DNA of 64,000 bases from Cordylochernes scorpioides. Its lineage: Eukaryota > Arthropoda > Arachnida > Pseudoscorpiones > Chernetidae. Shown here one piece after another: positions 23,501 to 25,579 of this stretch. The DNA is taken from contig CP092877.1 in assembly GCA_030710605.1 (NCBI GenBank), positions 42,950,406 to 43,014,405 on the forward strand. The letters are read 5' to 3'. A program made the position numbers and the translations under genes. The notes under the pieces were generated by a model that ran no database searches, was not told where the DNA came from, and saw nothing but the letters and a program-made list of their open reading frames with translations. Positions within the stretch are counted from its first letter, which is position 1. Every line of letters begins with the position of its first letter.

Positions 23501-25579
23501 ATGCCCTCAAGAAGGAATCGCCGACCATCCCAAACCCCTCCAGAGAACCCTGCCTCGCCGACCAGCACCGACATCCTCAGTTCCATAGCCGCACTGTTGC
23601 AGCAGATGGCTACTCGGAATCCGACACCGACAGTCCCATTAGGAGCTCCTCCTCACCACGCCACAAAAATCATCCAGCTTCCTAAACTGGCTTCCCCGGA
23701 GGAGTTAACGATGTCTTTTTTCCGCGATTGGAAACAACGTTGGAACGACTACGTGGACGCCCAACAAGTAGCCACCTTCCCGCTATCCACACAGCAAGCG
23801 ACTTTGCGTGCCGCCCTCCATTCCGAATGGACCATCCTTTGGCAATCAGGCCGCCTTCATATTTCTACCACCACCACCCTCGATGAAGCCGTGAATGCTC
23901 TTGAGGCCTACCTACGCAAGAAGCGAAACCCCCTCCTTGATCGGCAAGATTTTCATCGTAGGGACCAACAAACCGGAGAATCGGTGGATCGCTACTTCGC
24001 AGCCCTTAAAGCTCTTGATGACTCGTGTGCACATGAGCTGGATTTTAAGTGCAGCACATGCGGCGACCCGTGTATTACAATATGCACAAAAAGAGCTTGT
24101 GGGAAAACGTTTGCCCTTGCTGGTTATCAACAGCAACTCCGTATCCGTGACAGGTTAATATGTGGCCTGTTTGATAAAGAACTCCAACGAAAAGTACTGG
24201 CGGAGCAGTACAATTCCGACCTCTCACTGGACCGAGTCCTCTCAATTTGTCTCGCACATGAGAGTGCTACCGCCGTGGGCGCGACTCTTTCACCCTCCCC
24301 AACCACCTCCCCCGAAGCCTTCAGTGCAACCAGACGTGCACCATCAACCTACAAGCATCAACAAGCCAGCTCGTCTGAAACCTCACCTAAGGCCAACCGT
24401 TTCTTTCAGAAACCCTATGATCCTAACGACCCCTGCTCCGGATGTGGGGCTAACCCAAGACACCGCCGTGACCAGTGCCCAGCAAAAGACATAGAGTGTA
24501 ACAAATGCGGCATCACCGGGCATTACGGAAGGGTTTGCCGACAACTGAAACGGAAACCCACAACCAAACCTAATATCCCGCCACCTGCAACCAGAAACGA
24601 TCAGTCCCAACCAGGACCCTCAAACACAGTTGTTGCAGCTGGAGTACGCAACGAACTCATAACCATTCCGACCGATATCAACCATAAGTTACACCAAATC
24701 CGTTGGCTGGCGGACCCGGGGTCAGATCTGGATCTAATCCCAGAATCAGAATTCCTGTTACTGGATGAGCAGACCCGATCAGCACTCAACCCGAAGAACG
24801 TCCCTTGCGTAGGAGCCAACGGCATCAGCTTAAGTCCTTGTGGATCGTTCGTCGCGGCACTGCATCTCAACGGGAAAACATACAGTACTACCGTTGGAGT
24901 CTGCAAGCACCTGAACGCCCCTCTCTTGAGCAAGAGCGGATGCAAAGCCTTAGGACTTCTGCCGGATAACTGGCCCCATTCAATGATCGTCAATGCCATA
25001 ACCAAAAAAGGCTCATCACAAGTCACTATACCAAATGATCTCGCCGGTGCCATCATTGGGAAAGGTGGTCAACGCATCAGGAAGATCCGGCGCGAGTCTG
25101 GTGCGGGGATCACCATAGATGAGTCTCAACCTGGTAGCAATGAACGGGTCATCACCATCTCTGGCACGCCCCAGCAGATCCAGATGGCCCAGTACCTCTT
25201 GCAGCAAAATGTAAGAGAACATTCCTTCCGGAAGCGATACAATCGCAACGCCAAGCCACTCTCACATTTGGAAGTGGGAGCAATAGTCCTTGTCCAGGAT
25301 CACCGCACAAAACATTGGACCCTCCTTGCTGAGGTTCTCGAACAACTTCCACGCGGTCGCAGCTACCTCATCCGGACCGACGCCGGACGCCTTCTTCGCC
25401 GTAATCGCAGATTCTTACGACCTTTCGTGCCTCCACCGTACACCACCCCACCCAACTCAGCTCAACATCAGCAGACCTTATCCCCTCGAACCCGAGAACC
25501 GAACCCGCGTTATAGCAACTACGTTGGATCGGTCCCAAGTCCCAATCTCCAGGGGGGGCATGAGATAAGAGGCAGCTAG
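23501..25579 (+). CDS. Gag - zinc knuckles - protease-like - KH - integrase tail fusion protein
   Basis: Intact 692-residue ORF. Residues ~60-280 resemble a Ty3-type Gag (FFRDWKQRWNDYV, TGESVDRYFAALKALDD, RLICGLFDKELQRKVL). Knuckle 1 is C312-C315-H321-C326 (CX2CX5HX4C) and knuckle 2 is C333-C336-H341-C346. A retropepsin-like segment WLADPGSDLDLI follows, with D405 but DPG in place of D(T/S)G, so activity is doubtful. Residues ~506-572 form a type I KH domain with the RNA-gripping loop GKGG at 520-523, very close in pattern to the third KH domain of hnRNP K. Residues ~577-642 match the C-terminal tail of Ty3-type integrases (LRRNRRFLRP). The stop lies in the right LTR. The KH domain occupies the place where RT/RH/IN core would be. 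Confidence 0.92.
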   Translation: MPSRRNRRPSQTPPENPASPTSTDILSSIAALLQQMATRNPTPTVPLGAPPHHATKIIQLPKLASPEELTMSFFRDWKQRWNDYVDAQQVATFPLSTQQATLRAALHSEWTILWQSGRLHISTTTTLDEAVNALEAYLRKKRNPLLDRQDFHRRDQQTGESVDRYFAALKALDDSCAHELDFKCSTCGDPCITICTKRACGKTFALAGYQQQLRIRDRLICGLFDKELQRKVLAEQYNSDLSLDRVLSICLAHESATAVGATLSPSPTTSPEAFSATRRAPSTYKHQQASSSETSPKANRFFQKPYDPNDPCSGCGANPRHRRDQCPAKDIECNKCGITGHYGRVCRQLKRKPTTKPNIPPPATRNDQSQPGPSNTVVAAGVRNELITIPTDINHKLHQIRWLADPGSDLDLIPESEFLLLDEQTRSALNPKNVPCVGANGISLSPCGSFVAALHLNGKTYSTTVGVCKHLNAPLLSKSGCKALGLLPDNWPHSMIVNAITKKGSSQVTIPNDLAGAIIGKGGQRIRKIRRESGAGITIDESQPGSNERVITISGTPQQIQMAQYLLQQNVREHSFRKRYNRNAKPLSHLEVGAIVLVQDHRTKHWTLLAEVLEQLPRGRSYLIRTDAGRLLRRNRRFLRPFVPPPYTTPPNSAQHQQTLSPRTREPNPRYSNYVGSVPSPNLQGGHEIRGS
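25016..25216 (+). other. hnRNP K-type KH domain segment within the LTR element ORF
   Basis: Encodes the alpha/beta pattern of a KH domain: VTIPNDLAGAIIGKGGQRI, KIRRESGAGITIDES, ERVITISGTPQQIQMAQYLL. The hydrophobic positions and the GXXG loop are kept, so RNA or ssDNA binding is plausible. No intron is present, consistent with capture from mRNA (inference). Confidence 0.88.

What the first reader, a model, noticed from the sequence alone, without database searches (positions are those of the whole stretch)
23501..25579. Host-type hnRNP K KH domain captured by a young non-autonomous LTR retrotransposon
Seen: an intact 692-codon ORF between identical 329-bp LTRs with a perfect 5-bp target duplication. 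It encodes Gag, two CCHC knuckles, a retropepsin-like D-P-G, a complete KH domain with GKGG loop, and an integrase C-terminal tail. RT, RNase H and the integrase core are missing and the KH domain sits in their place. Known: hnRNP K KH domains bind C-rich RNA/ssDNA; Ty3-type Gags use zinc knuckles for RNA. Inferred: the KH domain was captured from a host transcript and may help package or localise element RNA, or hijack host RNA handling. I am not aware of this architecture having been described.
Basis: partly seen in the sequence, partly recalled or inferred. Interest (0 to 1): 0.92.

Follow-up and report, generated by a model that had tools for sequence, protein, structure and literature searches.

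The report
Jumping gene carrying captured hnRNP K
In the pseudoscorpion Cordylochernes scorpioides, a family of young mobile elements has lost its copying enzymes and carries in their place an RNA-binding domain copied from a spliced messenger RNA of the animal's own hnRNP K gene.

Summary
The host is the pseudoscorpion Cordylochernes scorpioides. The element has identical 329-bp LTRs, a 5-bp target duplication and an intact 692-codon ORF: Gag, zinc knuckles, protease-like domain, KH, integrase C-terminal tail. The KH segment (25010-25225) matches the host hnRNP K gene at 215 of 216 nt; in the gene it is split by two GT-AG introns, in the element both exon joins are exact. The one difference is synonymous and absent from 38 of 50 copies read. 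The upstream junction lies in a 9-nt identity (GGCTCATCA) shared by hnRNP K mRNA and a full-length related element: a template-switch signature. At least 94 genomic places score with this KH3. The partner's RT-RNase H-IN was scored at 43 places, 28 in open frames of 1481-1499 codons. So this is a recent mRNA capture by a Ty3/gypsy-type element, amplified presumably in trans; in-frame deletions (252 and 306 nt) kept the KH. A function for the KH is not shown: its changes among copies are near-neutral (12 non-synonymous, 6 synonymous). Precedents: maize Bs1, LTR-mediated retroposition. New variant of a known kind.

The parts
23097..23101 (.). target-site duplication CAGCC, left copy
23102..23430 (+). 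5' LTR, 329 bp, TG...CA
   Evidence: identical to the 3' LTR
23431..23448 (+). primer-binding site TGGCGCAGTCGACATTCG (by position and sequence; primer tRNA not identified)
   Evidence: same in the 2 partner 5' ends read
23501..25579 (+). 692-codon ORF, Gag-PR-KH-INtail fusion; stop 19 nt inside the 3' LTR
23501..24400 (+). Gag region, residues 1-300
   Evidence: aligned to the N-terminal regions of relatives P0131, P0009; no Pfam match
24434..24478 (+). first zinc knuckle, variant CX2CX5HX4C, residues 312-326
24497..24538 (+). second zinc knuckle, CX2CX4HX4C, residues 333-346
24671..24991 (+). retropepsin-like region, residues 391-497, signature DPG at 405-407 (relatives DTG/DSG)
25004..25009 (+). 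deletion join: residual RT N-terminal stub (KK) of the short class
   Evidence: against the long-class copy L031
25010..25225 (+). segment captured from spliced hnRNP K mRNA (216 nt, parts of three exons): KH3 domain
   Evidence: 215 of 216 nt identical to the host gene with both introns precisely absent
25010..25018 (+). GGCTCATCA, 9-nt identity shared by partner element and hnRNP K mRNA at the upstream junction
25226..25229 (+). TTCC, extra 4 nt at the downstream junction; aligns the hnRNP K frame with the integrase frame
25229..25423 (+). integrase C-terminal tail, residues 577-641
   Evidence: aligned to P0129, P0131
25551..25558 (+). polypurine tract AGGGGGGG
25561..25889 (+). 3' LTR, 329 bp
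25890..25894 (.). target-site duplication CAGCC, right copy

Best explanation
This is one copy of a young non-autonomous family derived from a Ty3/gypsy-type LTR retrotransposon of Cordylochernes scorpioides. Inferred birth: during minus-strand cDNA synthesis the reverse transcriptase, copying element RNA from the integrase tail, switched to a co-packaged spliced hnRNP K mRNA, copied its KH3-coding end, then switched back to element RNA at a 9-nt match near the start of RT. This removed most of RT, RNase H and the IN core and left one open frame, Gag-PR-KH3-INtail. The chimera keeps LTRs, PBS and PPT, so it is most likely copied and inserted in trans by the intact partner. Shown: intron-free hnRNP K origin, near-identity to the host gene, the microhomology, the partner, many copies with their own target duplications, in-frame trimmings that kept KH. 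Inferred: direction and timing of the switches, trans-mobilisation, and what KH does. My default is that KH is so far mainly a passenger in a still-open fusion frame; next most likely is a gain of RNA contact for the Gag fusion.
For: Host gene with KH3 split by 57- and 288-nt GT-AG introns; element has both exon joins exact. 215 of 216 nt identical; the single synonymous difference is in 12 of 50 copies, all short class, while the other 38 carry the host base. Partner DNA ...AAAAAAGGCTCATCAGAACCG in 3 of 3 copies read, host ...CAGGGCTCATCACAAG, element ...AAAAAAGGCTCATCACAAG. Downstream, AAGCGATAC is common to element and partner, with host sequence to ACATTCC. Own genome: 33 collinear copies and 31 copies of other deletion classes among 64 scored; 94 KH3 places scored of 461 first-look candidates. 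38 of 50 loci read have TG...CA ends plus a target duplication, 37 distinct; 22 of those 38 have LTR pairs scored identical. Partner: 43 scored places at 99-100% identity to P0129, 28 in open frames of 1481-1499 codons, 6 of 43 with a stop. Identical PBS and the same ATG in 2 of 2 partner 5' ends read; LTR/leader 95-96% identical to the window copy and 98% to long copy L031 over about 360-380 aligned bases.
Against: No transcript or protein data. Trans-mobilisation is inferred from anatomy. The 4 extra nt (TTCC) at the downstream junction are not explained by a simple microhomology switch. Copies were chosen by protein score, which favours intact ones, and counts are lower bounds. Of the 94 KH3 places only part was read. 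The donor is identified as hnRNP K by its KH2 and KH3 exons; KH1 was not clearly found in the stretch read. A DNA-level recombination with an hnRNP K retrocopy is not excluded.
Confidence: 0.9

Rival explanations
1. The KH works for the element: the fusion protein, carrying zinc knuckles plus KH3, binds C-rich element RNA or host RNA and improves packaging or localisation of the chimeric RNA by the partner's particles.
For: Domain match and GKGG loop intact; KH protein sequence unchanged in 39 of 50 copies; the frame is kept through the fusion and through deletions of 252 and 306 nt. The ORF strand is C-rich (31.7% C against 18.0% in the window).
Against: KH changes are 12 non-synonymous to 6 synonymous, about 0.79 of neutral (one-sided P 0.41), while the knuckle region shows 7 to 11 (P 0.004, one of six uncorrected tests); KH and knuckles do not differ significantly from each other (P 0.18). 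One copy has lost the loop glycine (G522C). C-tracts are below dinucleotide-shuffled expectation (CCC 55 against 70.8). The copies were picked by protein score, which favours an intact KH.
Confidence: 0.25
2. The KH acts as a decoy: it competes with host hnRNP K in a silencing or RNA-processing complex. In mouse ES cells hnRNP K is needed for SETDB1-dependent silencing of endogenous retroviruses (PMC4303303, abstract and section 7 read).
For: The captured domain has the amino-acid sequence of the host KH3.
Against: The mouse pathway runs through KAP1, a vertebrate factor (recalled); no data in arachnids were seen; KH3 alone was not tested in the section read.
Confidence: 0.07
3. The KH entered at DNA level, by recombination of an element with an existing hnRNP K processed retrocopy, not by template switching inside a particle.
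For: Extra TTCC at the downstream junction is compatible with end joining.
Against: 9-nt microhomology at the upstream junction; loss of RT-IN between two switch points is the expected outcome of copy-choice. No separate retrocopy was seen, but the search was not exhaustive (94 of 461 candidates scored).
Confidence: 0.08

Closest known systems
Bs1 of maize (LTR retrotransposon with transduced host gene segments; PMC13317346 passages)
   Same: LTR element with host-gene segments captured into its body.
   Different: Bs1 took segments of three metabolic or membrane genes in a plant; here one RNA-binding domain, complete and in frame, in an arachnid, with near-zero divergence from the donor gene and an intact partner in the same genome. 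Bs1's low copy number is recalled, not read.
LTR-mediated retroposition in metazoans (Tan et al. 2016; not held, read only through PMC8232201 and PMC5408686 passages)
   Same: Host mRNA co-packaged, template switching at microsimilarities, often only part of the mRNA captured, intron-free, flanked by LTRs.
   Different: There the product is described as a retrocopy flanked by LTRs; here the captured domain is fused in frame into the polyprotein and the KH is found at 94 or more places.
Gag-only non-autonomous LTR families (TR-GAG and similar; recalled)
   Same: Gag kept, pol lost, presumed trans-mobilisation.
   Different: Carries a host KH domain and an integrase tail in the same frame.
Oncogene-transducing retroviruses (recalled)
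   Same: Host coding sequence fused to gag with loss of pol; needs a helper.
   Different: Germline retrotransposon family; no env-like or growth gene seen in the ORF; payload is an RNA-binding domain.

Membership tests
Ty3/gypsy (Metaviridae) LTR retrotransposon lineage | LTRs with TG...CA, PBS, PPT, 5-bp target duplication | tested here: met
   LTR ends plus duplication in 38 of 50 loci
Ty3/gypsy (Metaviridae) LTR retrotransposon lineage | pol order RT-RNase H-IN | tested here: not met
   absent in this copy; met by the partner protein P0129, so this is a derivative, not an autonomous member
Non-autonomous derivative with an autonomous partner | partner shares LTR, PBS and Gag | tested here: met
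   LTR/leader 95-96% over the aligned part, identical PBS and ATG in 2 of 2 partner 5' ends read; Gag shared at protein level with P0003, which carries the IN core. Partner Gag DNA was not read and the first part of the LTR differs
Non-autonomous derivative with an autonomous partner | mobilised in trans | not testable with these tools
   inferred from own target duplications and near-identical LTRs without pol
mRNA capture by template switching (LTR-mediated retroposition) | introns precisely absent | tested here: met
   two introns
mRNA capture by template switching (LTR-mediated retroposition) | microhomology at the switch points | tested here: met
   9 nt upstream; downstream at most AAG, with 4 extra nt, so clearly met at one of two junctions
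hnRNP K KH3-type domain | KH type I domain with GXXG loop, best match to hnRNP K KH3 | tested here: met
   by sequence only, no structure model was obtained
Active retropepsin | catalytic D-T/S-G | tested here: not met
   DPG
KH kept by selection | purifying selection on KH across copies | tested here: inconclusive
   12 N to 6 S in 50 copies, not different from neutral, few changes

The most novel reading that the evidence does not exclude
A retrotransposon has acquired a host RNA-binding domain as a working part: the Gag-PR-KH3-INtail fusion uses hnRNP K's own KH3 to select, package or shield its RNA or to divert hnRNP K, and this gives the pol-less chimera an edge over, or parasitism upon, the intact partner.
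Probability: 0.25. Interest if true: 0.85.

Novelty: new variant of a known kind. Interest (0 to 1): 0.66.

Why it matters
Donor gene, acceptor element, both junctions and three structural classes of the product lie in one genome with almost no divergence, so the steps of a gene capture by an LTR element can be read directly. It is also a natural test of whether swapping pol for an RNA-binding domain helps a parasite of a parasite. For annotators it is a warning: three database proteins that hold pieces of these copies are named HNRNPK (P0001, P0002, P0008).

Tried and rejected
Considered and rejected: (1) chance KH-like match: rejected by Pfam and PDB scores and DNA identity to the host gene. 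(2) Single mutated copy: rejected, 64 copies scored. (3) Seven KH places with short open frames as a separate retrocopy class: two of the seven were read (L052, L053) and are broken copies of the same element; five were not read. (4) C-rich self-binding sites in the element RNA: not enriched. (5) Primer tRNA: no tRNA in the window, not pursued. (7) Exact genome-wide count of the KH by a DNA pattern: not completed (97, 104, 108, 111, 115, 119). (8) A tree of 50 copies did not settle the order of the deletion classes: short needs 6 and medium 7 changes, 6 of 41 inner branches well supported, bootstrap not converged. (9) Prior descriptions: searches listed no paper whose title or abstract start describes a KH domain in an LTR retrotransposon, and 113 (pseudoscorpion with LTR retrotransposon) found none; the listings, and only the passages cited, were read, and the library is open-access only.

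Full report
Observation. The element lies at 23102-25889, between CAGCC duplications, with two identical 329-bp LTRs. The 692-codon ORF is intact. Pfam finds KH_1 at residues 507-569 with 74.4 bits and the closest solved structures are KH3 of hnRNP K. The element interrupts a Ty1/copia-type element on the other strand (ORFs at 21859-23145, 25837-27561 and 27540-28544; the copia type is my reading of the translations).

Host. The eight best protein matches, 85-99% identical, are from Cordylochernes scorpioides, a pseudoscorpion, and the window lies in a 2.62-Gb, 24-contig assembly. Beyond that species the nearest full-length named relative listed is from a springtail (Orchesella dallaii P0131, 66% over 45% of the P0005 query), which shows RT, RNase H, H2C2 and integrase core in the ordinary order.

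Donor. The own-genome search with KH1-KH2 of a scorpion hnRNP K pointed to C9:99229920-99232292. KH2 matches there at 66-79% identity; KH1 was not clearly found in the 5-kb stretch read. KH3 is spread over three exons: the first ends AAATGAT, then a 57-nt GT-AG intron, a 170-nt exon, a 288-nt GT-AG intron, and a last exon that begins TGTAAGAGAACATTCC and ends the protein with GRKF and a stop. The element carries these three pieces joined without the introns, 216 nt (25010-25225), with one difference, a synonymous C to T. That T is in 12 of 30 short-class copies and in none of the 18 medium or 2 long copies, so the founder was most simply identical to the donor over the captured stretch. The capture is recent; I give no date because no rate for this animal was tested.

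Junctions. In three of three partner copies read the DNA is AAAAAAGGCTCATCA followed by GAACCG; the host mRNA reads CAGGGCTCATCA followed by CAAGTC; the element follows the partner up to GGCTCATCA and then the host. At the other end the element has host sequence to ACATTCC, then TTCCGG, then AAGCGATACAATCGC of the integrase tail; the partner reads CTCAAGCGATACAATCGC in three of three. If GGAAG is host sequence, TTCC is a 4-nt repeat, and by arithmetic those 4 nt bring the hnRNP K frame into the integrase frame. Whether they arose in the switch or afterwards is unknown.

Copies. With the window protein, 64 of 13,366 first-look candidates were scored: 33 are collinear over residues 1-676 or more, two of these with a stop; 31 match in two pieces because they keep more of the RT beginning, three of these with a stop. 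I read 30 of the 33 (L001-L030, L004 being the window copy itself; one has a stop) and 20 of the 31 (L031-L050; none of the three with a stop). In these 50 the KH frame is continuous with the integrase tail and with the protease region; one copy, L025, has a stop in Gag. Selection by protein score favours such copies. Three classes appear: long, with about 109 residues of RT beginning (2 of 50; one of them, L033, lacks a further few residues there), medium with a 252-nt deletion relative to long (18 of 50), short as in the window with a 306-nt deletion (30 of 50); the deletion lengths were measured on one copy of each class. These shares reflect the query. In the KH search 59 of 94 rows have open frames of 690 codons or more and 30 have 810 or more, one of which (981) is the short-class copy L024, so the long class is probably common. 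All 94 rows cover the same KH3 residues at 82% identity to the scorpion protein; those not read are element copies by inference only. In 38 of 50 loci LTR ends and a target duplication were found, 37 of them different; 12 of 50 failed this test, for reasons not examined one by one. In that script 22 of the 38 have LTR pairs scored at 100%; the window copy was scored 99.7% only because the match ran three bases past its end.

Selection. Against the window sequence, 50 copies show 12 non-synonymous and 6 synonymous variants in KH (neutral expectation 2.52 to 1 with transitions weighted three to one; one-sided P 0.41), 7 and 11 in the knuckle region (P 0.004), 58 and 33 in Gag (P 0.086), 14 and 7 in the protease (P 0.44), 9 and 5 in the integrase tail (P 0.41), 6 and 5 in the last part (P 0.22); the tests are uncorrected. 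KH against Gag gives P 1.0, KH against knuckles P 0.18, knuckles against all other regions P 0.07. So the test does not show constraint on KH; most variants are singletons and may have arisen after insertion. KH protein is unchanged in 39 of 50.

Partner. P0129 was scored at 43 places of 80,697 first-look hits at 99-100% identity; 28 lie in open frames of 1481-1499 codons (20 of exactly 1488), 6 of 43 have a stop. PBS and start are the same in two of two partner 5' ends read; LTR/leader is 95-96% identical to the window copy and 98% to the long copy L031 over about 360-380 aligned bases; the first part of the LTR differs. I infer that such copies supply RT, RNase H and integrase in trans.

Mechanism and function. 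The birth by two template switches fits the model summarised in PMC5408686 (passages). What KH does is open. Kept frames and an intact domain are compatible with use; near-neutral variants and youth are compatible with a passenger. I put function in the broad sense at one in four to one in three.

Comparison. Bs1 of maize is a precedent of host-gene segments inside an LTR element (PMC13317346 passages). I found no description of a KH domain in an LTR retrotransposon in ten searches of an open-access library, listed under Tried and rejected; this does not exclude one elsewhere.

Noticed in passing
35143-36748: Another young LTR element: 271-bp LTRs 99.3% identical, flanked by ATATAT, with a 389-codon ORF (35452-36621) without any Pfam match up to E 1.
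   Followed up: partly
21632-28800: Ty1/copia-type element on the minus strand, LTR-like ends of about 213 bp at 98.1% identity, interrupted by the KH element.
   Followed up: partly
P0129, P0131, P0132 (RT): The RT catalytic box reads VVED in P0129 and P0131 and IVED in P0132, pseudoscorpion and springtail; the majority of the wider alignment reads VDD.
   Followed up: no
23501-25579, residues 405-407: Protease signature DPG in the eight proteins P0001-P0008 and in P0130 of this species, P0003 with integrase core included, against DTG/DSG in 12 of 13 relatives.
   Followed up: partly
L005: This copy has 179 extra bp at the start of the 3' LTR region, including an inverted partial LTR, with an intact target duplication.
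   Followed up: no
L006/L007 (C3:67.58 Mb): Two identical ORF copies in tail-to-tail orientation about 600 bp apart, without a target duplication found.
   Followed up: no
25208-25216: AAT|GTAAGA after the KH looks like a splice donor; gene models P0002 and P0130 leave the element there, probably an annotation artefact.
   Followed up: no
30385-30484: A run of N (100 in the window), probably an assembly gap.
   Followed up: no
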